This document shows, one piece after another, positions 41,112 to 57,767 of a DNA stretch of 60,955 bases; position 1 is the stretch's first letter, and each line of letters opens with the position of its first letter. The stretch lies in NCBI RefSeq assembly GCF_016775155.1, contig NZ_JAEUGD010000016.1, positions 111,794 through 172,748 on the forward strand, written 5' to 3'. The notes below the pieces were generated by a model. That model was not told the origin of the DNA. It saw only the letters and a program-made list of their open reading frames with translations, and did not search any database. Source of the DNA: Fulvivirga marina. Lineage in GTDB: Bacteria > Bacteroidota > Bacteroidia > Cytophagales > Cyclobacteriaceae. The position numbers and the translations under genes are program-made.

Positions 41112-41185
41112 GGCGAGGTAGCTCAGTTGGTTAGAGCGCAGGATTCATAACCCTGAGGTCACGGGTTCAACTCCCGTCCTCGCTA
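41112..41185 (+). tRNA. tRNA-Met (anticodon CAT), island integration site
   Basis: A 74-nt cloverleaf: acceptor GGCGAGG/CCTCGCT (with G1-U72), D stem GCTC/GAGC, anticodon loop TTCATAA, T stem ACGGG/CCCGT with T-loop TTCAACT. The 31-39 pair is an A-C mismatch. CCA is not encoded. It is not the initiator type (no GGG/CCC anticodon stem); elongator Met is preferred, though tRNA-Ile2 with modified C34 is possible. The 3' part (41140 onward) is the attL repeat and is duplicated at 57721-57767. Confidence 0.93.
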
Positions 41186-41186
41186 C
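41140..41186. repeat. attL, left attachment repeat
   Basis: 47 bp from the anticodon-stem A to the base after the tRNA discriminator, identical to 57721-57767. It completes the functional tRNA, so integration did not destroy the gene. Confidence 0.92.
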
Positions 41187-41190
41187 ATAA

Positions 41191-41214
41191 AAAAGGCACT
41201 TTCGAGTGCCTTTT
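41191..41214. terminator. UUCG-loop terminator after tRNA, element-borne
   Basis: AAAAGGCACT (41191-41200), TTCG loop, AGTGCCTTTT (41205-41214), then TTTTC. It ends tRNA transcription on the plus strand and, by symmetry, integrase transcription on the minus strand. It lies inside the element. Confidence 0.85.
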
Positions 41215-41225
41215 TTCATTTGGTG

Positions 41226-42479
41226 TTAAGTTTTGGTGTTAAGTTCAGACAGAAATCCAAACAGCTTTTGCCCCTGAAGCTGCTCCATTATTTGCTTTTG
41301 CCCCAGGTAAAAATCAATTGTTGTAGACAAATTTTTATGCCTCTTTAGAGCCTTTGACTTATCACCCAACATATCCCATAATCTTGTTTCCAGTGTTTTC
41401 CTCAACGCCTTAAATTCTTTCCTGGTGTTGAATCCAGCTATCGACCAAAAATGCGAAAAGGCCTTTGAACATTGATCTTTTAATGTTTGCCGGTTTGCAT
41501 GGCATGGCTCTATAATATAATCATCGTCTCCCCCTCTTTCAAGTGTCAACAAGAAAGATGCTACATCTTCAGTTATTGGCAGATAGTGATGATCCTCAAT
41601 CTTCTGCTTTCTATTCACTTTAAAGTTTGGAACCTTAATATAATTCTCTTCTATGTGTTGCCATTTCAAAAGAAACACCCCATCTCTGCGCTCACCAGTG
41701 TAGAGCGCCAAAAGGATCGCATTCCTGAGCCATGGCCGATAGAAATTCCTTCTGGTCTTCCCTACCTGAGCCCAACCATTGTCATATGAAATCACCTTAA
41801 ACAATTGCTCCAGTTCTTCCTCGTAAACAATATCTGGGTTGTTTACAGTATATTTCTGAGTTATCCGGTTAAATGGATTACTTTCAGTAAAGCCTTCTGT
41901 AATGAAAGCATTGTACATGGTACGAAGTCCAACAATATGCTTATTGTAGGTCTTATTCGCGTACCCTTTATTTTCCAGGTAATTATGAAAGATACCAAGG
42001 TGACGTTTATTCAACTGGAAGGATTTTATCTTAACTCCTTTCTGAATCAATGCCTCACGAAATCGATTTATAAATCGTTTCTGTTCAAGGATATAATCTT
42101 CACTTAGATTCTTCTTTTCAAATTCTTCAACGTTCAAGTCTTTTAAGTAATCTAAATACCACGCAATACCCTGATCCAGATTTTGAGGGGACTCACCTAT
42201 TTCCTCATTATAATTCGCTTGTATAGCGCTTATATCGTATTCATTCTCAACAAGAAGCTGCTTCCATTCCTGATGATGCAGATATGCATCCTCAACATCC
42301 AAATTACTCCAACTCTTAATAAGGTCAGCTTGTTTAGTATTTGGATTCCAAACTCTCGATTGATAGACCATACTATGCCCAACACGCCTGCATGGACTCT
42401 TTGTAACCACCTTTTTGCAGGTATTGCACCATACGTGTAACCCAGTTCGCTTGTATTTGGCCGGTAACGTTAATCGCAT
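41226..42479 (-). CDS. Tyrosine integrase with N-terminal zinc-finger-like motif
   Basis: A 417-aa site-specific recombinase that inserts and excises the element at the tRNA. The catalytic domain (about 215-410) has the first Arg in Y-T-G-E-R-R-D-G, a second box L-R-K-T-L-E-T-R-L with the usual His position replaced, a later H in L-K-R-H-K-N, and the nucleophile Tyr in T-T-I-D-F-Y. A SAM-like core-binding domain lies at about 85-200. Residues 15-37 hold C-N-T-C, a further Cys and a His (C-x2-C-x9-C-x4-H), resembling a zinc ribbon, unusual among phage integrases. It overlaps the HTH gene by 10 bp, and they form one operon. Confidence 0.9.
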   Translation of the reverse strand: MRLTLPAKYKRTGLHVWCNTCKKVVTKSPCRRVGHSMVYQSRVWNPNTKQADLIKSWSNLDVEDAYLHHQEWKQLLVENEYDISAIQANYNEEIGESPQNLDQGIAWYLDYLKDLNVEEFEKKNLSEDYILEQKRFINRFREALIQKGVKIKSFQLNKRHLGIFHNYLENKGYANKTYNKHIVGLRTMYNAFITEGFTESNPFNRITQKYTVNNPDIVYEEELEQLFKVISYDNGWAQVGKTRRNFYRPWLRNAILLALYTGERRDGVFLLKWQHIEENYIKVPNFKVNRKQKIEDHHYLPITEDVASFLLTLERGGDDDYIIEPCHANRQTLKDQCSKAFSHFWSIAGFNTRKEFKALRKTLETRLWDMLGDKSKALKRHKNLSTTIDFYLGQKQIMEQLQGQKLFGFLSELNTKT

Positions 42480-42712
42480 AATCTATAATCTAAAGTTGCA
42501 AATTCAGATTTAGGCTGATACCCCATTTTTTTCCTCACTTTCTCCTCTATTGTAAAGGCTCTATTCAGCTCATTCACTGAAAACCAGGCTTTACCACCCT
42601 TTCTAATAATTCTTACCCCTAGCTTTTGTAAATTACCTATTATCGTTCTTTTATCCTTCCAATTATACTCCTTTCTCAACACCTCTACCGGATAGTATTC
42701 GATCCCATTCAT
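42470..42712 (-). CDS. Small HTH protein, possible excisionase
   Basis: An 80-aa basic protein with a winged or MerR/AlpA-like helix-turn-helix (K-D-K-R-T-I-I-G-N-L-Q-K-L-G-V-R-I-I-R, about residues 19-37). By position, overlapping the integrase start, it is a likely excisionase or recombination directionality factor. Sequence alone does not prove this. Confidence 0.6.
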   Translation of the reverse strand: MNGIEYYPVEVLRKEYNWKDKRTIIGNLQKLGVRIIRKGGKAWFSVNELNRAFTIEEKVRKKMGYQPKSEFATLDYRLCD

Positions 42713-42760
42713 TTCTTCAGCCCCTCCGTAGGCTGCTCCTTATTCAACTTCACACATAAA

Positions 42761-42786
42761 AAAACCGGGCTCTTAGTCCCGGTTTT
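42761..42786 (-). terminator. Terminator after 90-aa ORF
   Basis: AAAACCGGG (42761-42769) pairs with CCCGGTTTT (42778-42786). It separates the 90-aa gene from the HTH-integrase operon. Confidence 0.75.
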
Positions 42787-42818
42787 ATAATCAATATTTA
42801 AAAAGGTTAAAGCGCGAT

Positions 42819-43091
42819 TCACTCCATCACCCAATCAACTACCCCATTCCTAACCCTCCTTTCGGGTCTCACACTTAACAGCAAGTTTCTTGCATCTCCC
42901 ATTGTCTTTAAAGCCATTTCGCCAAGGTTCTTCATTTCCTGTATAGCTTGGCTCCTGAAAACTTCGTTATCTATACTTTTGAATGCCCCATATGCCATGA
43001 CCATATCATGACTAAGGTCTGTTACTGTTTGATTATCTGAGTGCTCCTTTGCTAACTCATCGTCGATAAATTGAAAGAAAAATTCAGTCAT
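42819..43091 (-). CDS. Unknown 90-aa element protein
   Basis: A small mostly helical protein (F-F-F-Q-F-I-D-D-E-L-A-K-E-H near the start). I do not recognise it. It is the first minus-strand gene leaving the shared control region, so it may belong to the lysogeny or copy-control side. It has its own terminator. Confidence 0.55.
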   Translation of the reverse strand: MTEFFFQFIDDELAKEHSDNQTVTDLSHDMVMAYGAFKSIDNEVFRSQAIQEMKNLGEMALKTMGDARNLLLSVRPERRVRNGVVDWVME

Positions 43092-43118
43092 AATTTGTGT
43101 TCTTATTTAAAGCCAAAT

Positions 43119-43559: not shown

Positions 43560-44678
43560 ATGGGGAATGATATGAGAAGTAATGGACAAATTGAAAAAGT
43601 GAGAGGGAAAGTTGGTGTAGATGGTTTCAAAACGCTGGACAAGTATTACGATCCAGGGTTAAAACAATTATTCGGACAATTTAGCAAAGTTGAAAGACAA
43701 TTGATGGAAACTGAGCTGAAGGGGCAACCAAGTTTGATATTTTATTACGCTGTAATTAAGTGCTGGAGGCGACTTAAAGGTAAATACAAAAACATGGCAG
43801 TAGTAGCCGATACATTTTTGGAAAGTTCTAATCTAAAAGAATGTTATTCAGAAATATACTCATCAGATAAAAACATTGTCAACCGTAAAACGGTCAAGAA
43901 TTGGAGAAAAGAACTTGAATCCAGGGGTATTATTAAATGTCACGGCTATGTAGATGGTGGTCATCTTATTGAATTTATTAAAGAGCGAGAATTGAATTCA
44001 AGTGGCTATGAAGAGATCACAAAAAAAATGCTTTTAACTGATAAGCTAACATTAGCTGATAAGAAGTTTATTATTTCAATAGTCCCGTTCATTCTAAATG
44101 AGCGAGATGTAATAATTCTGAACAACAGAGAAATCGCAATTGCAACGGGGTATGACGAACATACAGTTGGCAGAATAATGAGAGATTTTGAACGCAGAGG
44201 AATAATTGCAGTAAACCCAACCAGCTCTGAGCGATTGTTTAATCTGACATGGCTAATGACTGGTCTGATGGATAATTACATTGAGGCATTAGCCAGAATA
44301 AATGAGCTAGAAGATGAAAACTTGAAATTGAGAAGAAGGATCGAGATGCTTGAAAGGCAACTGCAGGCCTTAAATGACTCTAAAAAAAATTCCTTAAGTG
44401 AAGTTTTAAGCACTCTCATTGAATCCGTAAAGAATCAAGTCGAAAGCAATATAGCACCTGAAAAACTTGATGAAATCCTTCTTATGATCGAGAATAAGAT
44501 TTTAAGTGCTGTGACTGATGAGAAAAATAAAAATATCGCTGGCATATTGATAGGTTTGTCTGATACTGAACTGGACGAACTACGAGAGCTGAAGGAGGAG
44601 GGCATGGAGCCTTTCGAGATCGCAAGAGAAACCTCTTTTGATCTGCAGGAGATAGAGTCGGCTTGGTCTATAATCTGA
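43560..44678 (+). CDS. Winged-helix replication-initiator-like protein
   Basis: A 372-aa protein with two winged-helix-like segments: N-R-K-T-V-K-N-W-R-K-E-L-E-S-R-G-I-I (about 107-124) and A-I-A-T-G-Y-D-E-H-T-V-G-R-I-M-R (about 199-214). A coiled coil (about 240-275) and an acidic tail with a possible third HTH follow. I do not recognise the family. Two winged helices plus four 17-bp direct repeats at 21-22 bp spacing beginning at the stop codon are the hallmark of plasmid initiators (Rep_3 type) with iterons, so I infer replication control. It may instead be a phage replication-organiser or repressor. The second ATG (43572) is an alternative start. Confidence 0.65.
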   Translation: MGNDMRSNGQIEKVRGKVGVDGFKTLDKYYDPGLKQLFGQFSKVERQLMETELKGQPSLIFYYAVIKCWRRLKGKYKNMAVVADTFLESSNLKECYSEIYSSDKNIVNRKTVKNWRKELESRGIIKCHGYVDGGHLIEFIKERELNSSGYEEITKKMLLTDKLTLADKKFIISIVPFILNERDVIILNNREIAIATGYDEHTVGRIMRDFERRGIIAVNPTSSERLFNLTWLMTGLMDNYIEALARINELEDENLKLRRRIEMLERQLQALNDSKKNSLSEVLSTLIESVKNQVESNIAPEKLDEILLMIENKILSAVTDEKNKNIAGILIGLSDTELDELRELKEEGMEPFEIARETSFDLQEIESAWSII

Positions 44679-44757
44679 TGTAGAAAAGTTCTTAGGTGTT
44701 GCACAAAAGTTCCCTATTCGTTGAACAAAACTTCCCTCATGTTGAAGAAAAGTTCCC
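44677..44757 (+). repeat. Four iteron-like direct repeats
   Basis: Consensus GTTGAAGAAAAGTTCCC occurs at 44698-44714, 44720-44736 and 44741-44757, with a weaker copy at 44677-44693. Spacing is 21, 22 and 21 bp, i.e. two helical turns. They begin at the Rep-like stop codon. Confidence 0.8.
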
Positions 44758-44762
44758 ACATA

Positions 44763-44898: not shown

Positions 44899-45093
44899 TC
44901 CCCACGATTAACCAGTATTCTAAACGAGGTTCCCCACGATTAACCAGTATTGTATCCAGAGATAACTAATAAGTTAAAAGCACTTTAAATGAACACTTCA
45001 GACTAATCTATATAGAATCTCTCAGTCAAACCATGTAAGAATACCGGTTAATCGTGGGGAACTAAGATGTTTAATACTGGTTAATCGTGAGGA
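44899..45093. repeat. Two direct and two inverted 21-bp repeats
   Basis: TCCCCACGATTAACCAGTATT lies at 44899-44919 and 44931-44951. Its reverse complement occurs at 45040-45060 (one mismatch) and 45073-45093 (one mismatch). Pair spacings are 32 and 33 bp. The mirror layout spans 195 bp. Confidence 0.85.
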
Positions 45094-45148
45094 CCACTCA
45101 GAACGAAAAGGTTTAACCAAGGGTAGATATAATTTACTATACTTAAAC

Positions 45149-45316
45149 ATGGAGGCAAAGACAGAAAGTGAGTTATTAGAAAGACTGAAAGATTTGGGAC
45201 TATCGTTTCGAATACAAGAGACTATCAATATGCGGCTTATACTGATTAATGTAGATGGCATTGAGACCACCATAGCCTTTCATAAGGGAACTGGTCAAAG
45301 ATTAGATTTATATTAG
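45149..45316 (+). CDS. Unknown 55-aa protein after the origin
   Basis: ATG 45149 to TAG 45316. The protein has a helical start (E-L-L-E-R-L-K-D-L-G) and a beta-rich end (I-L-I-N-V-D-G-I-E-T-T-I-A-F-H). The frame is short, but a good terminator follows 26 bp later (45342-45369), so it looks like a real one-gene unit. The last inverted repeat (45073-45093) sits 55 bp upstream and could repress it. Function unknown. Confidence 0.55.
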   Translation: MEAKTESELLERLKDLGLSFRIQETINMRLILINVDGIETTIAFHKGTGQRLDLY

Positions 45317-45369: not shown

Positions 45370-45576
45370 ATTGATTCGAATTGGTTTTGATTGCCTGCTA
45401 AACAATCTATCTCCCTTTCAGATGTTACACATTTTGAGAAAAAAGAGGCAACATGTCGTAACCTCCCCCCTATCGTTTTTACTATACTTATTTGATTTTA
45501 ACATGATTGTTTTTTTGGTTGATACCTCATTGACCCTGTAAGGTCTTTGAGGTTTTCTTAAGGATGAATGTAACAT

Positions 45577-45831
45577 ATGAATGAAAAGATAAGAATAAAG
45601 AACTTCTGGTATAGAGTTATATACTTTCAAATCTTCCATGGAGCTAGCGTGGCTAGAGCAGTCGAATTGGCCAAGCAGGAATTAGGGAATCCACCATACA
45701 AATACAACAGAGCACACGCAGCAAGGATATTAAACAAATTTGATTATCAGTCTTATAAAAGAAACCTACTGGAAAGGCTATCAGAATTTGAGAAGGATAT
45801 AACGAATAGCATAGCCATTATTGAAAAGTAA
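45577..45831 (+). CDS. Unknown 84-aa element protein
   Basis: A basic, mostly helical protein with a V-A-R-A-V-E-L-A-K-Q-E-L segment (residues 26-37) followed by N-R-A-H-A-A-R-I-L-N-K-F, which could form a DNA-binding helix pair. I do not recognise it. The next gene starts 9 bp downstream. First gene of the rightward phage block. Confidence 0.5.
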   Translation: MNEKIRIKNFWYRVIYFQIFHGASVARAVELAKQELGNPPYKYNRAHAARILNKFDYQSYKRNLLERLSEFEKDITNSIAIIEK

Positions 45832-45840
45832 ATTAGGAGA

Positions 45841-46080
45841 ATGGATATAAAATTCAACAAATCGTACATCGAGTTTGACAGCAGAATATTCAAGCTGCCA
45901 TTCGCGGAAGTAACGAACATACCGTCTGGTTTGGAGCTTCAATTTGAGAATAAGAAAAATATTATCATCACCTCCATCACGGATATTACATCTATCACAG
46001 ATAACACATCAGGATCGCCTCAGAACATTTCTATTCCCGCTACCCTGGATGCACTTAAAAAGCTATTAATAGGATTTTAA
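45841..46080 (+). CDS. Unknown 79-aa element protein
   Basis: A small beta-rich protein with a Thr/Ile/Ser-repeated middle (I-T-S-I-T-D-I-T-S-I-T-D) and P-A-T-L-D-A-L-K-K-L-L at the end. Not recognised. Its stop codon lies inside a perfect hairpin (46075-46107). Confidence 0.5.
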   Translation: MDIKFNKSYIEFDSRIFKLPFAEVTNIPSGLELQFENKKNIIITSITDITSITDNTSGSPQNISIPATLDALKKLLIGF

Positions 46081-46107
46081 AGCAGTAAGTAGAGTACTGC
46101 TTTAAAA
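46075..46107. promoter_or_regulatory. Perfect 13-bp hairpin over a stop codon
   Basis: TTTTAAAGCAGTA (46075-46087) and TACTGCTTTAAAA (46095-46107) with a 7-nt loop. The stop TAA (46078-46080) is in the stem. No T-run follows, so it could act as a processing or stability site, or attenuate. Confidence 0.6.
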
Positions 46108-46144
46108 TACGACAATAATTATAATAGATTTAACAGTTTATAAC

Positions 46145-46801
46145 ATGCAAGAAGAGACAGAAAAAGAAGAGATAATTGTAATTACACCAGAAACCAAAAA
46201 AAAGGTTGAACAGAAAATCAAGCAGTGTCAATTACTGACAGAATTGATTTCTAAAGTATATGACTCATTACAGTTACTTGATGGTGTTGATTTAAATAAA
46301 GAATTTGTTTTAGGGATGCTTAAAGGGGCAATTAAGCTAGAAAGTACGGGAGTACCCACAAGTAACACCAATTCATTTTTGACGAAAATCAATGAAATCT
46401 ATATTAATTCGAAATATAATAATGACCCGAACATTGAATTTAGTATAGCAGAAGCCTTGAAGGTGTATCGCCTAAAACTACCAAAAGAGACTATTAGCAC
46501 AATTGATTCAATCTTCAGTTTACATGATGCTCTAGCTTACATAACAGTCTCAAATAATACTTTTGTTTTTTCTCAAGATAGTATTTACAGATCAACTGGT
46601 AAAGTATTTAAAGGTGATGCCGCCAGGAGATACAGCATATTAAAAGCGCTGGAAGAAAATATTAACGAAATGTTAAGTGAAGCCTTTAAAGGCCCCTTCC
46701 CTCCCATTGAAAAGATTTTTAACCAGACTTTATTGAATGCATATCAATCAACTGAGATTGGACAGGTAGAAGTAAATCTTCATTTGATAGAACGCTATTA
46801 A
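46145..46801 (+). CDS. Unknown 218-aa element protein
   Basis: A soluble, mostly helical protein starting with a Glu/Lys-rich stretch (E-E-T-E-K-E-E-I-I, then E-T-K-K-K-V-E-Q-K). No domain recognised; it stands where phages often place scaffold or assembly factors, before the protease, but there is no sequence evidence for that. Part of a tight co-oriented block (next start 8 bp away). Confidence 0.6.
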   Translation: MQEETEKEEIIVITPETKKKVEQKIKQCQLLTELISKVYDSLQLLDGVDLNKEFVLGMLKGAIKLESTGVPTSNTNSFLTKINEIYINSKYNNDPNIEFSIAEALKVYRLKLPKETISTIDSIFSLHDALAYITVSNNTFVFSQDSIYRSTGKVFKGDAARRYSILKALEENINEMLSEAFKGPFPPIEKIFNQTLLNAYQSTEIGQVEVNLHLIERY

Positions 46802-46809
46802 AAGACTCT

Positions 46810-47415
46810 ATGAGACAACGAGTACTCGAACTTAATTTAACAGGAACAATTGACAGAGCATGCTCTGAAGGCTTTGTTCAACAATTTAAAAAGCTTGAAG
46901 CTCAAAAGCCCGATAAAATCTATATTCGAATTAATAGCCCTGGCGGTTCGGTATTACATGGATGGTCAATGGTTGATGTAGTAATGAATTCCAAAATTCC
47001 AACTACCGCAATTGTAGTTGGAGTTGCGGCATCAATGGCAACTACAGTCATGGCAGCAGCCGACAAAGCCGTGATAATGGAACATGCTTCATTGATGATT
47101 CATAATCCATTCGATCCAACAGAAGTCACTGAACATTCCAGTCCACAAGTAAAAATATATGCCGGACAGATTGCCACACTGTATGCTAAGCGCTGGGGTA
47201 AACATAAAAGCCAAATCATGAAAATAATGGCCGGTGCAACCGGTGGTGACGGTACGTGGTATAATGCTCAACAAGCTCTCGACATGGGAATTGTCTCTAA
47301 TATAATAACGCTTCCCCATCAAACGTCAAGTCAAAGAACTCTTCCGGGCATGGCGGCTACTTTGTCGGACATAGAATCCCGAAGTAGTAATCTTTTAACT
47401 CAAATTAGAATATGA
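46810..47415 (+). CDS. ClpP-type phage prohead (head maturation) protease
   Basis: A 201-aa serine protease of the ClpP/crotonase fold. I-N-S-P-G-G-S-V (residues 41-48) forms the oxyanion strand, Ser75 in A-A-S-M-A is the nucleophile, and His98 in M-I-H-N-P the base. Phages use such enzymes to cut scaffold and head proteins during maturation. It is odd that no major capsid or portal gene lies next to it. The next gene overlaps by four bases. Confidence 0.85.
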   Translation: MRQRVLELNLTGTIDRACSEGFVQQFKKLEAQKPDKIYIRINSPGGSVLHGWSMVDVVMNSKIPTTAIVVGVAASMATTVMAAADKAVIMEHASLMIHNPFDPTEVTEHSSPQVKIYAGQIATLYAKRWGKHKSQIMKIMAGATGGDGTWYNAQQALDMGIVSNIITLPHQTSSQRTLPGMAATLSDIESRSSNLLTQIRI

Positions 47416-47696
47416 TCTATAAAGAAAAAGAACTTACCTCCTTTGAAATGAATGTTTTAAAGCTACATGTCTATCATGGGTATAACAAAATAAAGGCATT
47501 GCTTGAGGTTTTCAGTAAATACACCTCATTGAAGAATAGTGAATTGGACATTGTTAATTCTGGCTTTTGGGCTAGACCAAGTGTTCAACGACAATTGCGG
47601 AAGATGCAGGGTGATAATGACGCCGCAAGCCTGTGCGAACCAGCAATTGGCACATTATATAATCATAGTGAGGGTATTGAAATGATATTATTATGA
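47412..47696 (+). CDS. Unknown 94-aa element protein
   Basis: A soluble protein with no recognised domain; start overlaps the protease stop (ATGA) and its stop overlaps the next start (ATGA), so it is translationally coupled on both sides and is a real gene. Function unknown. Confidence 0.65.
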   Translation: MIYKEKELTSFEMNVLKLHVYHGYNKIKALLEVFSKYTSLKNSELDIVNSGFWARPSVQRQLRKMQGDNDAASLCEPAIGTLYNHSEGIEMILL

Positions 47697-48925
47697 AAGA
47701 ACTAGTTTTTAATACAGGGGGAAGAAAGTTATTTAATGAGGATTTTGAGGCTCTACAGGCCTTATCCAAATCTTTCGAATCATTTTACCTGACTGAAGAT
47801 CCTTTTGTAATCACCGGGGTAAATATAACTTCGGTCAGTGGTAATATTTACAATGTTTCCCCCGGCTATGTATGGTTAGGAAATAGGATCAGAAGATTTG
47901 ATGGAGCCACAAATACCGACCTCACAAGCGACTTATTTATTAATGTACGTGACACTGAAGAAAGTAAAGAATATTTTGATAATGTTTCTAGGGTATCAAG
48001 TCGTACCTATGGATCAATTCTTTCTAACACCAGTTTAGGTGGATCAAATTCACTACGTATATCAAGGACAACAGATGCAAGAAGATACGTAAAGGATGTA
48101 TTGGGAGGTAAGGTGGTATTATTAACGCCATTTACTACCACCCAGACTGTACAGAACAATTTAACCCTTCAGGGAGATTTAACAGTTAGTGGCTTTAAGT
48201 TCGGGGCATCTGGGCAAAAAGTGACGGCAATTAAAACTACGGTTACTGACAGCCATTCAGACCTGGCCACCAGTAAAGCGGTAAAAGATCATGTAGTTAA
48301 CCACGGGGCGCCAAAAGGTTTTATTGGCATGTGGTCTGGAGCAATTGCGGAAATACCTTCTGGTTGGGTGCTATGCGATGGCAGGGCGGCAGTTAACGGT
48401 CAGACCATACCAAACCTTAAAGGTAAATTTATAGTTGGCTACGATCCTAATGATAATGATTACGATGCTATAGGAAAGACTGGTGGAGAAAAGGAGGTGA
48501 CATTAACTGAAGCTCAGTTACCAGTCCATAAGCATGATATAAGCATGGAGAGTGCCGGTAATCACATTCACAATGCCTCAACTGGTAGTGCCGGTAGCCA
48601 TAGTCATACAGGATCAATCGGGTATGGAGGTACGCATAGTCACACGGTTAATAATGATCCATATCACACGCCGGATGGAACCGATTATACTCCTGGGGAA
48701 TGGGGTGGTACATCATCAGGAAATGGAGTTGTGGCAACAAGCTCTAATGGATATCATAATCACTCAATTACGATTAACAGTGTCGGTAATCACACTCACA
48801 CAGTTACAATAGGTAATGGAGGTAATCACATTCACACATTGTCAATGGGCAATACAGGCCAGGGCCATGCACACGAAAACCGACCACCTTTTTACACATT
48901 GGCGTTCATTATAAAAACTGTATAA
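47693..48925 (+). CDS. Tail-collar fibre protein with HxH repeats
   Basis: A 410-aa phage receptor-binding or fibre protein. Residues about 210-260 form a tail-collar domain (G-F-I-G-M-W-S-G, I-P-S-G-W-V-L-C-D-G, P-N-L-K-G-K-F-I-V-G). The rest (about 275-400) is Gly/Ser-rich with eight H-x-H motifs (HKH, HIH, HSH, HSH, HNH, HTH, HIH, HAH). T4 gp37 uses stacked HxH motifs to bind iron inside a trimeric needle, so a metal-stabilised trimer is likely. It ends R-P-P-F-Y-T-L-A-F-I-I-K, typical of collar proteins. Confidence 0.88.
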   Translation: MKELVFNTGGRKLFNEDFEALQALSKSFESFYLTEDPFVITGVNITSVSGNIYNVSPGYVWLGNRIRRFDGATNTDLTSDLFINVRDTEESKEYFDNVSRVSSRTYGSILSNTSLGGSNSLRISRTTDARRYVKDVLGGKVVLLTPFTTTQTVQNNLTLQGDLTVSGFKFGASGQKVTAIKTTVTDSHSDLATSKAVKDHVVNHGAPKGFIGMWSGAIAEIPSGWVLCDGRAAVNGQTIPNLKGKFIVGYDPNDNDYDAIGKTGGEKEVTLTEAQLPVHKHDISMESAGNHIHNASTGSAGSHSHTGSIGYGGTHSHTVNNDPYHTPDGTDYTPGEWGGTSSGNGVVATSSNGYHNHSITINSVGNHTHTVTIGNGGNHIHTLSMGNTGQGHAHENRPPFYTLAFIIKTV

Positions 48926-49288
48926 ATGAGAATAAATGAACATGCTGTAGACCTAGTACTCTGCTTATTCAATGAATGCGCTGACTACTATAAGACAAAA
49001 GGACACATGAATGGCTTTAAGTATTCCAAGGAAGTTATTAAGGGACTCCAGACGCTTTACAACGCCTCTGGTCTTAACCAGGACAGCTCCTTTGATGAGT
49101 TCCTGGTATTCGTTCATAACTCAGCTCTTCAGTGCGCCAACGACAGATATATTCGGGTAGCTGGATTAGCTTGGTTCCTCACAAGAACTCTTGATGTTGG
49201 GTTCCGCAATGCCAGAAATCAATTGTCCAAGAAAAATCACGACTGCATTAAAACAAATTTGTTAAAACTTCAACTAAACAACATCTAA
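48926..49288 (+). CDS. Unknown 120-aa element protein
   Basis: A soluble helical protein, start codon directly abutting the fibre stop (TAAATG). Not recognised; could be a fibre chaperone by position. Confidence 0.6.
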   Translation: MRINEHAVDLVLCLFNECADYYKTKGHMNGFKYSKEVIKGLQTLYNASGLNQDSSFDEFLVFVHNSALQCANDRYIRVAGLAWFLTRTLDVGFRNARNQLSKKNHDCIKTNLLKLQLNNI

Positions 49289-49295
49289 TAGGCTC

Positions 49296-50870: not shown

Positions 50871-50966
50871 ATGGGAAATGAAATAGTTTTATATGCTTTA
50901 GCTTTTTTTGTTGGTGCCGTCATTTATATGGTGCTTAGGATTGGGAGGGAAACTGGAGTTATTTAA
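50871..50966 (+). CDS. Putative 31-aa single-TM protein
   Basis: M-G-N-E-I-V then a hydrophobic helix (about residues 6-22) and a basic tail R-I-G-R-E-T-G. ATG 50871, TAA 50964-50966. Its stop overlaps by four bases the stop of the minus-strand gene. Size and shape fit tiny phage membrane proteins (holin-like or toxin-like), but coding is unproven. Confidence 0.35.
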   Translation: MGNEIVLYALAFFVGAVIYMVLRIGRETGVI

Positions 50967-51742
50967 TTTTTGCGTTCGTTTTGCCATTCTTGTATTTGTG
51001 AATCCAGTTCGTGAAAATTTGTTACTAAATCGAGAAAAATATTTCTAAAAAGCGTTAATTGGCTTTCTGCAGTGAGATAATCCAGGTCTTTAACATCAAC
51101 AACAGAATTTTTAAGCTTCTTTTCCAGCATAGCTAGCCTCTTTTCAACAGCATCTGCAAGATAACCGTAATAGTGCCCATATGAATAATAATAAAAGTCC
51201 TGAATCAACAATGCCAAATATATTTTGTCGTCTTTGAACATCTCCAATTTGCTAACACGCTTCATTAACATGCTAAGCTTGTTTACCGATGCATATAATG
51301 ACAAATGATAAGCTGTTTTATGAATAACTTCGTCACTATTAGGTGTTTTTAGTTTATTTATATACTGCCTAAGCGAATCTTGCCCAGTTTCTATCTGATT
51401 CTTTCCACTTTTGTATGTCAAATCATCAAATTCCTTTCTGCATAATTCAAGAAGCTTTAATGAACTGCTAAAGTTTTGTTGTTGGCGGTTCCGATTCCTT
51501 TCTCCATCTATAGCTCTTTCTTGCACCTTATTAGCTGCAATTTGCGCCTTAAATGATATGTAGACGAGTATTGCCCCAACCAAATTAATTATAGGTGCGG
51601 TAATACCACCAATTGTATCTCCAATAGGGCCGGAATTTGATAAATCAAAAAAGGGATGGAGGGCTGGTTTGGATAAAAATAAAACTGAACCGATGCAGCA
51701 AATAACCAGTCCTGTTAATAACAATAGATGACGCTTACTCAT
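50963..51742 (-). CDS. Two-TM protein of putative abortive-infection type
   Basis: A 259-aa protein. Two N-terminal helices (about residues 4-24 and 39-62) enclose the motif G-P-I-G-D-T-I-G-G-I-T-A-P-I-I-N, which resembles the membrane part of putative AbiC-like proteins (PutAbiC family). The rest is a helical cytoplasmic domain. It overlaps the upstream gene by 8 bp, forming a two-gene operon opposite to the phage genes, as cargo morons usually are. Phage-defence function is inferred from family resemblance and context. Confidence 0.65.
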   Translation of the reverse strand: MSKRHLLLLTGLVICCIGSVLFLSKPALHPFFDLSNSGPIGDTIGGITAPIINLVGAILVYISFKAQIAANKVQERAIDGERNRNRQQQNFSSSLKLLELCRKEFDDLTYKSGKNQIETGQDSLRQYINKLKTPNSDEVIHKTAYHLSLYASVNKLSMLMKRVSKLEMFKDDKIYLALLIQDFYYYSYGHYYGYLADAVEKRLAMLEKKLKNSVVDVKDLDYLTAESQLTLFRNIFLDLVTNFHELDSQIQEWQNERKN

Positions 51743-52697
51743 TATTTATGTTCAAAATTGCAAGTTGTTCCTCTGACTTTACCGAATATTTTCGAAGAAG
51801 CTGATTAGATTTTGTACGTAATTCGTCTTCTATTTTATTAAATTCCGAATAGTATTCTTGAAATGAATTAGCAAGTTCAGACGAATCAAGTTTGATGTTA
51901 CTGAAGGTGTGTGTCGCTTTCTTGACTAACTGCATAATTTCTGTACACTCCGGCAAATCCCTAAAATCGTTCATTATCGTATGCCCAACAGGTTTTACAA
52001 AAGCTTGTTGGACATAGGTTAGACTTGATGCATCTGTACGTTTAATATGATAACTACCTAATAATTGATTCAACGCCACCCATACAGGTATTTCGGTATA
52101 TGTTTCGAGATTCGACTTTCTTATATTCTCAATAAAAAGACCTACGTAATTTAATAATTTTTCCGCCTCATTCTTATACTGAAATCTTCTTTCTGTTATA
52201 TGCTTCTGCCCCAGCTCATTCTCACTTCTGGCAGCATCTATTAGGACATCTAAAAAGTCTAAATTAGAATAAATGGCCGTAAATCTATTGATGTCGGTAT
52301 CTTTCGATCCCATCTGGTCTAAATAAGCTTGATAAATCTCATGTTGATTCATTTTTTGAACACGCCTTATGTCGTGATTAACCCGATATCTTACTAAATG
52401 GGTCTCATAAGGCTTTGCCTCCAAGGCCTTAGCAAAATTTAAATAATCCTGCTTCTGCCCATTAGTAAACTTTAATATGTTCCTAAGCAAAGCACAAAAA
52501 TATCGCAACAGCTCTTCATCTCTCTGATTTTTTAGCTTTCTGGATTTCTTTCTATCAGATTTCAATGTTTGGTAAAAAATCCATATAGCCGCCCCAGAAC
52601 CTATAACAGCCCCAATAACAGCGATAAGTAGATTTTCGAAAAAAGAGGAGTTTCCACTAACTGGATACACATCGCCAAACTGAAAAATTAAATCCAT
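51735..52697 (-). CDS. Membrane-anchored helical protein, operon partner
   Basis: A 320-aa protein from ATG 52695-52697 (a TTG extension to 52718 is possible). One helix near residues 18-40 anchors it (E-N-L-L-I-A-V-I-G-A-V-I-G-S-G-A-A-I-W-I-F); the rest is charged and helical. I do not recognise the family. Its gene precedes and overlaps the Abi-like gene, so both probably act together at the membrane as a two-part system. Confidence 0.6.
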   Translation of the reverse strand: MDLIFQFGDVYPVSGNSSFFENLLIAVIGAVIGSGAAIWIFYQTLKSDRKKSRKLKNQRDEELLRYFCALLRNILKFTNGQKQDYLNFAKALEAKPYETHLVRYRVNHDIRRVQKMNQHEIYQAYLDQMGSKDTDINRFTAIYSNLDFLDVLIDAARSENELGQKHITERRFQYKNEAEKLLNYVGLFIENIRKSNLETYTEIPVWVALNQLLGSYHIKRTDASSLTYVQQAFVKPVGHTIMNDFRDLPECTEIMQLVKKATHTFSNIKLDSSELANSFQEYYSEFNKIEDELRTKSNQLLRKYSVKSEEQLAILNINNE

Positions 52698-52822
52698 AAA
52701 AGACAACAATAGATACAACCTTTAAGATAAATAAATTACAAGAAACATACTTGCTTTCTTTAAACCCTTAAACCCCCAGCTAAGTCATTTACTATACTTA
52801 ATCAGACAAGAAGCAAGATTAC

Positions 52823-54721
52823 GTGAACGAGACAGTACAGTTTAATATCAAGGTAAATGACCTGGGATCATCTGCCTTAGCCAAGTTTGCAGCCAATGCA
52901 ACCAAGCACGTTGCCAGGGTTCAAAAGGTCACACAAGGTCTGGAAAAGGGAATTGGGGGCACATCCAGAAAGGTTGATTCCCTAACACGCTCATTCCAGA
53001 GTATGAATAAGGGCACCTCCGGAATTAAACAACTCAACAAAAGCCTTAAGACAACCGAAGGCATGATGGATCGCATCATGAATCGGATTAATAGAGTAAA
53101 ACGCTCCTCCATAGCACAGCCAAGGGCAAGAGGCGGTGCCAGTGCCGGTGTGGGTTTAGGGCTTGGGAATTTAGGAGCTCTGGCGGGTGGTTTCCTTGGA
53201 TTCCAGGGGATGAAATCACTTGTTTCATCAGGAGCAGATTTAGAGCAAACAAGAGTAGCATTTTCAACCATGCTTGGCAGCGATGACCAAGCAAATAATA
53301 TGATAAATGCTATAAATAACATGGCCAATAAAACGCCATTTATGAATAAGCAATTATTCGATGCCGGTAAACTGCTACTGAACTTTGGATTAGCTCAGGA
53401 CCGCGTGTTACCTTCATTAAACATGCTTGGAGATGTTTCCGGGGGAAATGCTCAGCGCTTTCAGTCGTTAGCCTTGGCATTTGGTCAGGTGCAGAGCGCC
53501 GGAAAGCTCATGGGACAAGACCTTTTGCAAATGATAAATGCAGGTTTTAACCCTCTTCAAGAAATGAGCAAAATGACCGGTAAGTCTATGGCACAGTTGA
53601 AAGAGGAAATGTCCGAAGGAGCTATTTCTGCTGATATGGTTACTCAGGCCTTCGAACATGCCACATCAAAGGGCGGCAAGTTTCACAATATGATGGCCAG
53701 ACAAAGCAAAACACTATCCGGACTTTGGAGTACATTCATTGGTAAGTTACAATTGAAGTTCTCCCAATTCTCAGAAGGCACCTTAAGTGAAACTTTTAAA
53801 AAGGTGGTCAAATGGGGGATTGGTTTGGTTGACAGGCTGGACCCGGTTCTAAACCTTTTAGGTAGAGGTTTCCAAACTGCCACCAACTGGATATCCGGAT
53901 TGATATCTTTTGTAAAAGAAAATTGGAGCTTCTTAGCTCCTGTTACCGCTGGTATACTCGCTGCAGTAGTAGCTCTTAAAGCCTGGACAATCGCTCAGGC
54001 CGTACTTAATGCAGTAATGAGCGCTAACCCTATCGGGCTACTTGTTGTGGCCATAGGAGCCCTTGTAGGAGCTTTCATTTGGGCTTACAACTACTCTGAG
54101 AAGCTTCGTATGGTCTTGGGTGGATTATGGGGAGCCATTCAGTTAATCGGCTCTGGAATTGGCAAAGTATTTACTGACCCCATAGGAGCAATTAAAGACG
54201 CTTGGTCTGGAATTCAGAGTTTTCTATTTGATCAATTAAAGCCATTATTATCGGCAATTGATCTAATTCAAAAAGGAGAATATTTAAGTGCAGCCAAAGA
54301 AATTGGTAAAGCTGCTTTTAATCTTTCACCAGCTGGGCTGGCATTTAATGCCATAAACAAAGTTGTTACTTCTGATACCGTTCAGAAAGCTGCTAAAGAT
54401 GCTAAGGATTCACAAATAGGTTTACCCTCTTTCCTTTCTCCTGGTAAAATGACTCCAGTAGATATTAGCGATTTTCCCGGTACTTCCCTGCCAAATGCCA
54501 GTTCTCCTACTCTTGCAGATAAAGAAGCTTCTAAAGGTTCCGTCAAAAACTACAATGGCAATTCAACGGGTGGAAACTCAATTGTCATTAGCATTGAAGC
54601 TCTTATGAAAGACAATCACTTTGTCATGAATGATGGTAGTGACATTGAATCAGTTAAGGCTAAGTTATCAAAGGCTTTACTTGAAGTTGTACAGGACGTG
54701 GAAATAAGTTATAGTAGTTAA
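52823..54721 (+). CDS. Phage tape measure protein
   Basis: A 632-aa tail-length ruler. Starts with GTG 52823. Residues about 130-310 match the tape-measure N-terminal domain (T-R-V-A-F-S-T-M-L-G-S, M-A-N-K-T-P-F, L-A-F-G-Q-V-Q-S-A-G-K-L-M-G-Q-D-L-L-Q-M). Two hydrophobic segments lie near 365-425. At roughly 0.15 nm per residue it would set a tail of about 95 nm. It stands alone, away from other tail genes, with 125 bp between it and the membrane operon. Confidence 0.9.
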   Translation: MNETVQFNIKVNDLGSSALAKFAANATKHVARVQKVTQGLEKGIGGTSRKVDSLTRSFQSMNKGTSGIKQLNKSLKTTEGMMDRIMNRINRVKRSSIAQPRARGGASAGVGLGLGNLGALAGGFLGFQGMKSLVSSGADLEQTRVAFSTMLGSDDQANNMINAINNMANKTPFMNKQLFDAGKLLLNFGLAQDRVLPSLNMLGDVSGGNAQRFQSLALAFGQVQSAGKLMGQDLLQMINAGFNPLQEMSKMTGKSMAQLKEEMSEGAISADMVTQAFEHATSKGGKFHNMMARQSKTLSGLWSTFIGKLQLKFSQFSEGTLSETFKKVVKWGIGLVDRLDPVLNLLGRGFQTATNWISGLISFVKENWSFLAPVTAGILAAVVALKAWTIAQAVLNAVMSANPIGLLVVAIGALVGAFIWAYNYSEKLRMVLGGLWGAIQLIGSGIGKVFTDPIGAIKDAWSGIQSFLFDQLKPLLSAIDLIQKGEYLSAAKEIGKAAFNLSPAGLAFNAINKVVTSDTVQKAAKDAKDSQIGLPSFLSPGKMTPVDISDFPGTSLPNASSPTLADKEASKGSVKNYNGNSTGGNSIVISIEALMKDNHFVMNDGSDIESVKAKLSKALLEVVQDVEISYSS

Positions 54722-54843: not shown

Positions 54844-54847
54844 TATT

Positions 54848-55144
54848 ATGATATATAACATTTACGACGGAGAGCACCTTCATATTAAATACAATAAATT
54901 ACCATATTTGATCGAATGGAGGCAAACTAATCCATTAGAGCTAGAAGTTACTATTAATCCTAATATCCCTTCAGAAGAACTTAGGTCCCTCAGTACTCAT
55001 GATACCCTCACGTTTCATTGTGGCTATTTCATGACGACTAAAGAGAGTATAAGCTTCAATGTTGAAGGAAATCAATTTCTAACCTTAGTCTGTACAACCA
55101 AGCAACCACACCCTATTATTAAAACGGTTCCATTAAATATGTAA
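54848..55144 (+). CDS. Unknown 98-aa element protein
   Basis: A soluble, beta-rich small protein, no recognised domain, with a histidine-containing start (D-G-E-H-L-H-I-K). It has its own promoter box directly before the start. Convergent with the PLD gene. Confidence 0.6.
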   Translation: MIYNIYDGEHLHIKYNKLPYLIEWRQTNPLELEVTINPNIPSEELRSLSTHDTLTFHCGYFMTTKESISFNVEGNQFLTLVCTTKQPHPIIKTVPLNM

Positions 55145-55171: not shown

Positions 55172-55861
55172 TTATATCTTTTGAAGCATACCTGAGTTTT
55201 TAAAGCACTTTGAGCATTGCGGATACATCATACTAGTCTTGCCATGTGTACTTCCACCACAAGTATGACAATATTTCTCGGGATACTCATAATCGCCAAA
55301 ATTCGCCCATGTTCTATAGTGGTTAAAGCATAGTGGTTTGCCCAAGTCATATGGAATTTCTCCATTGCAACGGATACAGTGGCCATTAATGGGCTCATCA
55401 GAGGTATCATGGTTATTTGACACCAAAGCCACTTCTAATCTATCACTTTTTAGAAGCGCCCCTACTTCCTCTACTCCATCCTCATAAACCTGTTTATCCT
55501 GAATAGCATCCAAAAGTATCGCCATTTCCACATTATTATTCTCACTATATTCATAGAAGTTCATAGAGCCAATAATCATCTCCCTTTCATTGAAATAACA
55601 TTTCGCATGCAAACTCGGAAAATAGAGAACGGTGAGGTTCCTTAATCTCTCAAGCTTTTTCCATTCCTGCACCTGCAAATCATCCTTGCCAAAAATTATA
55701 GTGATATTAATATTCTCTCGACTATCAGCCTGTATAAGCCTGTCAAAAAAACTACTAGACAATTTCAGGTATGGAGTTACTAATACCAAGTGATCCTTTG
55801 CCTGGATAATAATATCTTCTAAGTGTTTTGCTATGCCTTTAGTACGTAAAAATTTAGCCAT
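55172..55861 (-). CDS. PLD-like protein with zinc-ribbon tail
   Basis: A 229-aa protein. One HKD half-site (L-H-A-K-C-Y-F, then G-S-M-N-F) marks the phospholipase D/nuclease fold, which would dimerise to build one active site. The C-terminal about 70 residues hold several Cys pairs (C-x2-C, C-x2-C, C-x2-C), a zinc-ribbon array. Such proteins cut nucleic acids or phospholipids. In an island they may act in defence or DNA repair. Single gene on the minus strand. Confidence 0.8.
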   Translation of the reverse strand: MAKFLRTKGIAKHLEDIIIQAKDHLVLVTPYLKLSSSFFDRLIQADSRENINITIIFGKDDLQVQEWKKLERLRNLTVLYFPSLHAKCYFNEREMIIGSMNFYEYSENNNVEMAILLDAIQDKQVYEDGVEEVGALLKSDRLEVALVSNNHDTSDEPINGHCIRCNGEIPYDLGKPLCFNHYRTWANFGDYEYPEKYCHTCGGSTHGKTSMMYPQCSKCFKNSGMLQKI

Positions 55862-55972: not shown

Positions 55973-56003
55973 TTGCTAATTATTTTAGTATTTACTAAAT
56001 TTG
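55973..56003 (+). promoter_or_regulatory. Promoter of 110-aa gene
   Basis: TTG (55973-55975), 20 bp, TAAATTTG (55996-56003), five bases before ATG 56009. This favours ATG 56009 over the upstream TTG at 55973, which is the -33 box. Confidence 0.55.
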
Positions 56004-56008
56004 AAAGC

Positions 56009-56341
56009 ATGAGACTATTACCAGGTATTTATAAAATCAAGCTTAGAACTCTCATTGAAGAGTTCGCTGTATTACGTGTATACATGAAAGATGGAAAGAA
56101 AGTATATCAAGTCAATAATGGTCCTGAAACAGACTTAGATTGGCTCATGGATAGAGACCCATGCCAAGTAATTAAGCAAATAAAGCAGCTACAGGTACAA
56201 AACGCTCGGATCGATATCAAAATCACCGATTCCGATGGTGACTATTTTAGTTTTCCTGCATCTAGTGTGGAGGTTGTTAGGCAGATATTTCAGACATTTC
56301 CTGATGTAGGGAGGGCTTTGGGGGCAAAAGTAAACCAATAG
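56009..56341 (+). CDS. Unknown 110-aa element protein
   Basis: A soluble small protein with V-Y-Q-V-N-N-G-P-E-T and I-T-D-S-D-G-D-Y-F-S-F segments, no recognised domain. The start ATG 56009 is chosen from the promoter; a TTG at 55973 would add 12 residues. It is followed by the HEPN-like pair after 87 bp. Confidence 0.6.
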   Translation: MRLLPGIYKIKLRTLIEEFAVLRVYMKDGKKVYQVNNGPETDLDWLMDRDPCQVIKQIKQLQVQNARIDIKITDSDGDYFSFPASSVEVVRQIFQTFPDVGRALGAKVNQ

Positions 56342-56428
56342 GCATTATGAAATACTTTTAGTACATTCATTCTCCTATAGATATACAGCTGACTGAATTA
56401 AACTATTACCATAATTACAGCTAAAACA

Positions 56429-57013
56429 ATGACAATGGAAACGACTCATATATTATCTCATTGGCGATATTATCTTGCATTAGAAAGTGATCTTGAAAAA
56501 ATTTCACGCTATATAGAATTTCATCCTTCTAACAATAAAACTTACTCGATTGAATTAGCACATCTTTTCCTTACTTCATGTTCCGAAATTGATGTTCTTT
56601 TCAAGTTAATTTGCACCAAATTTGACCCATCGAGTAAAGCTTCGAACATCAACAACTATCAAGATGAACTATTAAATCATCATTTTGAGATTGTACATGA
56701 ATATGTTTATTTAGATAGATTCAATTATGGATTTCAGCCATTTAACCAATGGCATGAGTTTAAAGTTCTTGACTGGTGGTCGGCCCATAATAAAGTTAAA
56801 CATACTAGGGATCAACATTTCCCTAAAGCAAATTTAATAAATACTTTAATGGCCATGGGTGCTCTTCTAATTTTGAACATATATTTCTATACAATAAATA
56901 CAAATAGCGAATTAACAATTGTATCCATAAAAGAAACAATGCGAAAACTACGCCCAATGTCTCACTTTCTATCACTAAAAAGTCAATACTATCCGGTATC
57001 AATAATTGCATAA
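56429..57013 (+). CDS. HEPN-like helical protein
   Basis: A 194-aa helical protein. Its middle (W-W-S-A-H-N-K-V-K-H-T-R-D-Q-H-F, about residues 116-131, followed by A-N-L-I-N-T-L-M-A) recalls HEPN-like hypothetical proteins with a W-W-x-x-x-N-x-x-K-H-x-R signature. The canonical R-x4-6-H RNase motif is not clear. Six bases later a membrane protein begins, so they form an operon near attR. Toxin or defence role is inferred only. Confidence 0.55.
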   Translation: MTMETTHILSHWRYYLALESDLEKISRYIEFHPSNNKTYSIELAHLFLTSCSEIDVLFKLICTKFDPSSKASNINNYQDELLNHHFEIVHEYVYLDRFNYGFQPFNQWHEFKVLDWWSAHNKVKHTRDQHFPKANLINTLMAMGALLILNIYFYTINTNSELTIVSIKETMRKLRPMSHFLSLKSQYYPVSIIA

Positions 57014-57019
57014 AATTTA

Positions 57020-57622
57020 ATGGAAGACAGTAGTTTTAAATCAGTACGAAAGGGACTAATTGCTCTTTGTTTACTAATTATATCTCTTTTCTTATTAAAG
57101 ATCGAAATTACAGACTCTAAATTAAGCCTTCCTTTTTTGGGTGGAGCAAAAATCCAAGAGCCATTCTGGATTTTCAGAATTATCTATATTTTTTTCATTT
57201 ATTATTCTTGGAAATACTATCAATACATGATGCATGAACACACAGAGGGAAACCTAATAGAAAAAGCTAAACAAAATTTTGTAAACACATATGGCAGGTT
57301 CCATACCAGCCAAGCGAGATTAATAGCCACTCAGGAGCTGGGACATGAAAACGTAACCAGCGATATAAGTTATGAGGCTAAGAACGGCTTTGTAGCAACT
57401 TTTACTTGTTATTATATAGACCCAAGAACCAGAAATCGATTTCCGTATGCCGTTGATTTGAAAATCCCTTTTTATAAACATCTACTACATTACATGTTCT
57501 CAAATCCAGAATTTACCATTCTCTTCTTACCCATTATTTTATGGTTTTTTGTAATTTTCGTTGTCCTATTTCCTAAATGGGATGGTGGATTAAGTCTTTG
57601 GCCATACATTATCAATTCATAG
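57020..57622 (+). CDS. Membrane protein paired with HEPN-like gene
   Basis: A 200-aa protein with helices near residues 13-30, 50-66 and 162-182 and a cytoplasmic or periplasmic middle domain. No family recognised. Paired with the HEPN-like gene (6-bp gap), it could be an effector that acts on the membrane when triggered; that is a hypothesis. Confidence 0.6.
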   Translation: MEDSSFKSVRKGLIALCLLIISLFLLKIEITDSKLSLPFLGGAKIQEPFWIFRIIYIFFIYYSWKYYQYMMHEHTEGNLIEKAKQNFVNTYGRFHTSQARLIATQELGHENVTSDISYEAKNGFVATFTCYYIDPRTRNRFPYAVDLKIPFYKHLLHYMFSNPEFTILFLPIILWFFVIFVVLFPKWDGGLSLWPYIINS

Positions 57623-57720
57623 TGTTAAGTTCTATGTCAAGTTTTTGCAGAAAATTGATGTATATCCACTATTAAACGACTCATATAATATTGATTTTCA
57701 ACATTTTAATTACAAGCATT

Positions 57721-57767
57721 AGGATTCATAACCCTGAGGTCACGGGTTCAACTCCCGTCCTCGCTAC
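57721..57767. repeat. attR, right attachment repeat (tRNA 3' fragment)
   Basis: 47 bp identical to 41140-41186. It is the chromosome's original tRNA 3' end, displaced by the element and now without promoter or 5' half. Confidence 0.93.

What the first reader, a model, noticed from the sequence alone, without database searches (positions are those of the whole stretch)
41140..57767. 16.6-kb tRNA-Met island mixing replication, tail and defence-like genes without capsid genes
Exact 47-bp att repeats and an adjacent tyrosine integrase define the ends. Inside are a Rep-like gene with iterons, ClpP-type protease, collar fibre, TerS-like and tape measure genes, but no recognisable portal, major capsid, large terminase or tail tube. 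The combination fits a phage satellite or an unusual plasmid-phage better than a random prophage remnant, because the phage genes that remain are intact and packed with ATGA overlaps.
Basis: partly seen in the sequence, partly recalled or inferred. Interest (0 to 1): 0.82.

Follow-up and report, generated by a model that had tools for sequence, protein, structure and literature searches.

The report
Capsid-less phage-satellite island with tape-measure gene
A 16.6-kb piece of mobile DNA in a bacterial genome seems able to copy itself but lacks genes for its own virus shell; it probably hitchhikes in another virus's particles, supplying its own tail-length ruler and tail fibre.

Summary
The island is real: an exact 47-bp repeat (41140-41186 / 57721-57767) overlaps tRNA-Met, with an adjacent tyrosine integrase, an initiator-like gene, two iteron sets, a ClpP-type head protease, a collar fibre and a 632-aa tape-measure protein (TMP). 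HMM scans of 20 of its 21 named ORFs found no terminase, portal, capsid, sheath or tube; the TerS label is unsupported. New: a 32-bp two-box element (TAAMC-N14-TTTACTATACTTA) precedes a small ORF, the protease/fibre operon and TMP; in the 6.78-Mb genome it is exact only at these three places, suggesting co-regulation, not debris. The three phage genes resemble genes of contractile-tailed prophages; no fragments of other phage structural genes were found. Another genome of the family carries a 15,564-bp Mu-like element in two identical copies, also with ClpP protease and TMP and without recognisable terminase, portal or capsid. Best reading: a phage satellite that puts its own TMP and fibre into helper particles, as published for cholera PLEs (PMC12987554), with fibre and protease added. 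No helper, excision or transfer was shown; a prophage remnant or phage-plasmid remains possible.

The parts
41112..41186 (+). tRNA-Met (CAT), integration target
   Evidence: ARAGORN, Rfam RF00005
41140..41186 (+). att repeat, left copy (47 bp, inside tRNA-Met)
   Evidence: family D1
57721..57767 (+). att repeat, right copy (47 bp exact)
   Evidence: family D1
41226..42479 (-). tyrosine integrase, 417 aa; 67% identical integrase at the same tRNA-Met site in congener G036
42470..42712 (-). 80-aa protein overlapping the integrase start; relative beside a related integrase in G042 (30%, E 6e-5); candidate excisionase (inferred)
42819..43091 (-). 90-aa protein, unknown
   Evidence: no significant family match
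43560..44678 (+). putative replication initiator, 372 aa (winged-helix/RepL/DnaD-like, sub-threshold)
   Evidence: iterons directly downstream
44697..44761 (+). iteron set 1: three 21-bp repeats (TGTTGAACAAAAGTTCCCTCA)
   Evidence: TRF
44900..45092 (.). iteron set 2: four copies of CCCCACGATTAACCAGTATT (two direct at 44900 and 44932, two inverted at 45040 and 45073)
   Evidence: 0 in 100 shuffles
45114..45145 (+). 32-bp two-box promoter-like element, copy 1 (3 bp before ORF 45149)
45149..45316 (+). 55-aa ORF, unknown, not scanned against families
45459..45490 (+). two-box promoter-like element, copy 2, 86 bp before the 45577-49934 operon
45577..45831 (+). 84-aa protein, unknown
45841..46080 (+). 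79-aa protein, unknown
46145..46801 (+). 218-aa protein, unknown
46810..47415 (+). ClpP-type head maturation protease, 201 aa; protease domain only, without the C-terminal extension of prophage relatives
47412..47696 (+). 94-aa protein, unknown; 4-bp ATGA overlaps on both sides
47693..48925 (+). tail collar fibre, 410 aa: N-terminal ~82 aa shared with prophage fibres, collar-like C-terminus
48926..49288 (+). 120-aa protein, unknown
49296..49934 (+).
50963..51742 (-). 259-aa protein with membrane segments (read by eye), phage protein family of unknown function (phrog_8999, 8e-13); possible cargo
51735..52718 (-). 327-aa protein with N-terminal membrane segment (read by eye), unknown; possible cargo
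52769..52800 (+). two-box promoter-like element, copy 3, 22 bp before TMP
52823..54721 (+). tape measure protein, 632 aa
   Evidence: PF20155 1.2e-23, phrog_9959 1.8e-57, TIGR02675 3e-8
54848..55144 (+). 98-aa protein after TMP, unknown
55172..55861 (-). phospholipase D-like protein, weakly DrmC-like; phrog_9329 9e-40
55973..56341 (+). 122-aa protein; relative (28%) among chromosomal genes of G036
56429..57013 (+). 194-aa protein, unknown (phrog_19461 2e-6)
57020..57622 (+). 200-aa protein with membrane segments (read by eye)
   Evidence: no significant match

Best explanation
The island is an integrated phage satellite. Shown by sequence: it sits in tRNA-Met between exact att repeats with its own integrase, carries an initiator-like gene with iterons, and carries full-length TMP, baseplate-type fibre and head-protease-domain genes but no recognisable terminase, portal, capsid, sheath or tube; three copies of an island-specific promoter-like element precede a small ORF, the protease/fibre operon and the TMP gene. 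Inferred: when a contractile-tailed helper phage grows in the cell the island excises, replicates from its own origin, and fires its three promoters together. Its TMP and fibre then replace or supplement those of the helper, giving chimeric tails, while the protease acts on the helper's procapsid. Helper capsid, sheath, tube and terminase carry the satellite DNA out. The right end carries accessory, possibly anti-phage, genes.
For: att/tRNA/integrase; iterons; TMP, fibre and protease matches and absence of other structural families in 20 of 21 ORFs; no further ORF of the size of a large terminase or portal. The 32-bp element has 0 mismatches at only three places in the 6.78-Mb genome, all on the + strand of the island before genes; none at 1 mismatch, one at 2, and the weaker sites are at background (36 sites up to 3 mismatches against 48 for the reversed control). 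blastx of the island against 429 proteins from nine fetched regions with prophages or the Mu-like element hits only protease, fibre and TMP. The nearest TMPs (562 and 637 aa) lie in prophages, one of which has terminase, portal, protease, sheath and baseplate hub (G084, 10 proteins scanned). A second mobile element (Mu-like, two identical 15,564-bp copies in G071) has the same ClpP+TMP pair and no recognised terminase, portal or capsid. Precedent: PLE11 puts its own TMP into chimeric tails (PMC12987554, passages seen).
Against: No helper phage, excision, packaging site or transfer was shown. The resident C61 Mu-like prophage has a TMP that shares HMM families with the island's (PF20155; phrog_9959) but gives no blastp match, so no close helper is known in this genome. 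TerS, a common satellite gene (recalled), is unsupported. The full island was found in one genome only; rep and the 94-, 120-, 212- and 218-aa proteins have no convincing relatives in the collections searched (one marginal match, E 8.8e-4, to a 72-residue stretch of rep in G390), so conservation of the set could not be tested. A 13-mer three times on one strand was reached in 1 of 200 shuffles, and with up to 2 mismatches the motif is not enriched in the window (5 found, 3.9 expected). The protease lacks the C-terminal extension of its relatives, which could also be read as truncation.
Confidence: 0.55

Rival explanations
1. A decayed temperate phage: capsid, terminase and most tail genes were lost and a few intact genes remain by chance, with cargo inserted between the fibre operon and TMP.
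For: A ~1-kb stretch without a credible gene (49935-50962) and opposite-strand genes separate TMP from the operon; the island was found in one genome only; relatives of the three genes lie in prophages; the protease is shorter than its relatives.
Against: TMP and fibre are full-length and no fragments of sheath, tube, portal, terminase or capsid were found (against nine regions only); one regulatory element precedes both the operon and TMP; att sites, integrase and iterons are intact; the ClpP+TMP pair recurs in an unrelated mobile element.
Confidence: 0.22
2. An integrative plasmid or defective phage-plasmid that replicates by Rep and iterons and carries phage genes as passengers.
For: Rep-like gene with two iteron sets; no packaging genes recognised; another island with a related integrase, in G133, looks like a type I restriction cluster (ORFs read by eye).
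Against: No match of nine island proteins and the fibre N-terminus (one concatenated query) in 72,556 plasmid records; no mobilisation or conjugation family among the matches; virion-assembly genes under one regulatory signature are hard to explain as passengers.
Confidence: 0.15
3. A defence island: TMP, protease and fibre serve to poison assembly of infecting phages and the element does not travel in particles.
For: PLD protein and unknown membrane proteins at the right end.
Against: Own origin, integrase and a fibre with a conserved N-terminal domain are not needed for pure defence.
Confidence: 0.08

Closest known systems
PLE satellites of Vibrio cholerae (PLE11; PMC12987554, passages seen)
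   Same: A satellite that encodes its own TMP; the paper reports chimeric contractile tails with helper parts.
   Different: PLE11 is reported to encode TMP, tail assembly chaperone and baseplate hub; here TMP, fibre and a head protease, with no chaperone or hub recognised. No PLE sequence was compared; helper unknown here; nothing shown experimentally.
cf-PICIs (capsid-forming PICIs)
   Same: Some are reported to carry putative tmp genes (legend of Extended Data Fig. 10 in PMC12987554).
   Different: cf-PICIs make their own capsids (recalled); this island has no recognised capsid, portal or terminase.
15,564-bp Mu-like element of G071 (found here)
   Same: Mobile element with ClpP head protease and a TMP of similar length (680 aa), no recognised terminase, portal, capsid or sheath (16 of 20 ORFs scanned).
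   Different: Carries MuA/MuB-type transposition genes, no fibre or rep recognised; only TMP and protease are clearly related.
Prophages of the TMP/fibre relatives (G084, G132, G617, G520, G351, G376)
   Same: blastp-related TMP of 562-650 aa in five of the six (not G376), protease in four (not G132, G351), fibre N-terminus in four (not G084, G132).
   Different: G084 has terminase, portal and sheath; the others look complete by ORF layout only. Their proteases are 355-389 aa with a C-terminal extension.
MiniFlayer/MulchRoom satellite viruses (PMC10690885, start of abstract and passages seen)
   Same: Satellites with structural genes of their own, one with a tail fibre.
   Different: They are described as encoding encapsidation machinery and lacking key replication genes, the reverse of this island.

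Membership tests
Phage satellite (general; features recalled) | Integrated mobile element with integrase and att sites | tested here: met
Phage satellite (general; features recalled) | Lacks a full set of virion genes | tested here: met
   (20 of 21 ORFs)
Phage satellite (general; features recalled) | Own replication module | tested here: inconclusive
   iterons clear; initiator only by sub-threshold matches and a low-confidence fold
Phage satellite (general; features recalled) | Mobilised in particles of a helper phage | not testable with these tools
   needs induction or infection
PLE-like tail-pirating satellite | Encodes a TMP | tested here: met
PLE-like tail-pirating satellite | Encodes tail assembly chaperone and baseplate hub | tested here: not met
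   no significant PHROG/Pfam match of that kind; a diverged chaperone is not excluded
PLE-like tail-pirating satellite | Sequence relation to PLE genes | not tested
   no PLE sequence was fetched
PICI / cf-PICI (features recalled) | TerS, or capsid-packaging operon | tested here: not met
   no terminase or capsid family match; PF03592 gives no match in the own genome
Complete prophage | Terminase, portal, major capsid | tested here: not met
Decayed prophage | Fragments of further phage structural genes | tested here: not met
   (429 proteins from nine regions only)
Phage-plasmid / plasmid | Relatives among plasmids | tested here: not met
   no match for nine proteins and the fibre N-terminus in 72,556 records; TMP alone matches 79 records below 60% identity

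The most novel reading that the evidence does not exclude
Tail piracy is a convergent way of life for satellites in this bacterial family: unrelated 15-17-kb elements, one integrating in tRNA-Met and one transposing like Mu, have each kept a head protease and a TMP (here plus a fibre that could change host range) to build chimeric virions from a helper. The Mu-like one would be a transposable phage satellite.
Probability: 0.3. Interest if true: 0.85.

Novelty: new variant of a known kind. Interest (0 to 1): 0.62.

Why it matters
Satellite-encoded TMPs and chimeric tails were described as new in 2026 for cholera PLEs (PMC12987554, passages seen). A capsid-less island in a different bacterial group with TMP, fibre and protease under one regulatory signature, and an independent Mu-like element with the same pair, would show that building hybrid tails is general. 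A satellite-encoded fibre would let a satellite choose its next host independently of its helper, which is directly testable.

Tried and rejected
Searches for relatives of rep and the 94-, 120-, 212- and 218-aa proteins in phages, plasmids, IMG/VR (rep, 212 and 218 aa only) and genomes gave nothing convincing. Exceptions: the fibre N-terminus in two phage records and in nine other genomes of the order, seven of genus g96 and two of g119, and one marginal match to rep residues 224-295 in G390 (E 8.8e-4). In one search only two candidates per genome were scored because the query was long, so weak relatives may have been missed. Single-sequence AlphaFold of the 212-aa protein and of rep gave pLDDT 45.7 and 46.6, too low for a fold search, which was therefore not run. 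I considered that the 84-, 94- and 212-aa proteins share a fold; the two pairs compared (84 with 94 aa, 84 with 212 aa) gave no alignment. The promoter-like pattern in viral contigs gave five single hits without a significant island relative. A short TMP is not itself a satellite sign: related prophage TMPs are 551-650 aa. Two of the other genome sites of the 13-mer (C37, C38) lie inside chromosomal ORFs; the third (C42) is on a short contig that looks RHS-like by eye. TMP relatives in phage records (342) and plasmids (79) are all below 60% identity. MuA and the 212-aa protein of the G071 element had no relative in IMG/VR.

Left undone for lack of searches: a survey for ClpP+TMP without terminase, and a search of G071 for a Mu-like helper.
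Full report
Observation. The island runs from the tRNA-Met gene to a 47-bp exact repeat: ARAGORN places tRNA-Met(CAT) at 41112-41186, and the direct repeat 41140-41186 / 57721-57767 is identical over 47 bp. An integrase reads toward the tRNA next to it. I named 21 ORFs covering 81% of the 16.6 kb. Pfam and PHROG scans of 20 of them (the 55-aa ORF was left out) recognise integrase, ClpP-type head protease, collar fibre, tape measure protein, a PLD protein and a few phage proteins of unknown function, and no large terminase, portal, capsid, sheath or tube. Only five ORFs exceed 259 aa: integrase, rep, fibre, TMP and a 327-aa protein with a membrane segment read by eye. The terminase small subunit label is not supported.

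Origin. Downstream of the 372-aa initiator-like gene lie three 21-bp iterons (44697-44761) and four 20-bp iterons, two direct and two inverted (44900-45092; no copy in 100 shuffles). The initiator itself has only sub-threshold matches (RepL 0.0026, DnaD-like 0.0025).

Shared regulatory element. The 13-mer TTTACTATACTTA occurs exactly three times in the window, all on the + strand of the island, and three more times in the whole genome. In the three island copies a second box, TAAMC, stands 14 bases upstream; the 32-bp two-box pattern has no other site in the genome at 0 or 1 mismatch, one at 2, and background numbers at 3 (36 sites in all up to 3 mismatches, 48 for the reversed control). The copies end 3 bp before ORF 45149, 86 bp before the operon starting at 45577, and 22 bp before TMP. 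Against this: with up to 2 mismatches the 13-mer is not enriched in the window (5 found, 3.9 expected), and a 13-mer three times on one strand was reached in 1 of 200 dinucleotide shuffles. The case rests on the exact copies, the second box, the genome-wide rarity and the position before genes. The pattern was derived from these three copies, so the genome count is not an independent test. I read it as a promoter or operator that ties TMP to the operon although opposite-strand genes lie between them.

Where the phage genes come from. TMP relatives were found in 12 of 295 genomes of the family, own included. The nearest are TMPs of 562 and 637 aa in G132 and G084. G084 has terminase, portal, head protease, sheath and baseplate hub (10 of its proteins scanned); the other prophages were judged by ORF layout only. 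The fibre's first ~82 residues and its collar part match fibres of regions in genus g96 of another family of the order; one search found the fibre N-terminus in 9 other genomes of 390 searched (7 of g96, 2 of g119). The protease matches prophage proteases over its catalytic domain, with the Ser and His aligned and the third residue uncertain, but has no C-terminal extension. Bacteroides phage BS-TP1 and record MT835494 carry relatives of both the protease and the fibre N-terminus. blastx of the whole island against 429 proteins from nine fetched regions hit only these three genes.

The site in relatives. The gene next to the tRNA was found in 15 of 15 genomes of the genus, own included; regions of 13 of the 14 others were fetched (G204 was dropped because its match lies at a contig end). 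ARAGORN found tRNA-Met beside it in 11 of the 13. Nine of the 13 give 17 kb or more beyond the tRNA and G285 gives 6 kb; G269 and G275 end too soon and in G217 no tRNA was found, so these three could not be judged. G036 has a 67%-identical integrase at the same site but no other island gene, apart from a relative of the 122-aa gene 34 kb away among chromosomal genes; in the others tblastn of the island proteins found none (E up to 1e-3). In one search, 4 of 148 genomes of the family (own included) have a close integrase; those of G042 and G133 are 41% and 36% identical, and G133's island looks like a restriction cluster by eye. So the integrase family is not specific to satellites.

A second capsid-less element. 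G071, of the same family, holds a 15,564-bp element in two 100% identical copies with different flanks and, read by eye, 3-4-bp target duplications. Of its 20 ORFs of 50 aa or more, 16 were scanned against PHROGs or Pfam: MuA-type transposase (phrog_310 1e-41), MuB-type ATPase (phrog_296 4e-44), HTH repressor-like protein, IrrE-like protein, ClpP head protease of 300 aa, and no terminase, portal, capsid or sheath. The 680-aa TMP is named from its match to the island TMP (37% over 130 residues, E 2.7e-15) and was not itself scanned, nor were three small ORFs. Apart from transposase, TMP, IrrE-like protein, protease and MuB the ORFs are 284 aa or shorter. The ten Porphyromonas phage records with a related transposase that were listed are 33-35 kb. 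In shuffled alignments only TMP and protease stand out as shared with the island (z 25.6 and 23.0; next 6.1). Its 128- and 212-aa proteins were found in G071 itself and, weakly (E 5.6e-4), in one of 389 other genomes.

Mechanism. I infer a satellite that replicates itself and uses a contractile-tailed helper for capsid, sheath, tube and packaging, while providing TMP (tail length or evasion), fibre (adsorption) and protease (procapsid step). The TMP part follows what is reported for PLE11: passages seen in PMC12987554 report a satellite-encoded TMP in chimeric tails, call PLEs the first family known to do this, and mention putative tmp genes in PLE-like elements and cf-PICIs. In the listings of eight library searches (satellite with tape measure, Bacteroid-, tail and capsid terms, tail fibre, Mu-like and others) I saw no title or abstract start describing such an element in this group (open-licence papers only).

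Limits. No reads, no helper, no induction data. The own genome's C61 prophage is Mu-like with transposase, terminase, portal, major head protein and a TMP (10 proteins scanned); that TMP shares HMM families with the island's but gives no blastp match, so it is not an evident helper.

Noticed in passing
G071:C1:2400499-2416062 (L059/L060) and 5736813-5752376 (L140/L141): 15,564-bp Mu-like element in two identical copies: MuA, MuB, ClpP head protease, TMP, IrrE-like protein, no recognised terminase, portal or capsid; a candidate transposable phage satellite.
   Followed up: partly
G000:C61, about 197115-221273 (L020, L021): Mu-like prophage with transposase, terminase, portal, major head protein and a 795-aa TMP in the window's own genome; ends not determined.
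   Followed up: partly
G036:C1:3397295-3398332 (L111): Integrase 67% identical to the island's at the same tRNA-Met site, followed by small unknown genes; a cousin element or its remnant.
   Followed up: partly
window 57830-58021: 63-aa ORF that looks like an IS110-type transposase fragment just outside the right att site (read by eye).
   Followed up: no
window 49935-50962: About 1 kb without a credible gene between the operon and the opposite-strand pair; could hold a packaging or regulatory site. No Rfam match.
   Followed up: no
G000:C42:424-455 (L133): The nearest other copy (2 mismatches; the first box one base closer) of the 32-bp element, on a 7.8-kb contig that looks RHS-like by eye.
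   Followed up: no
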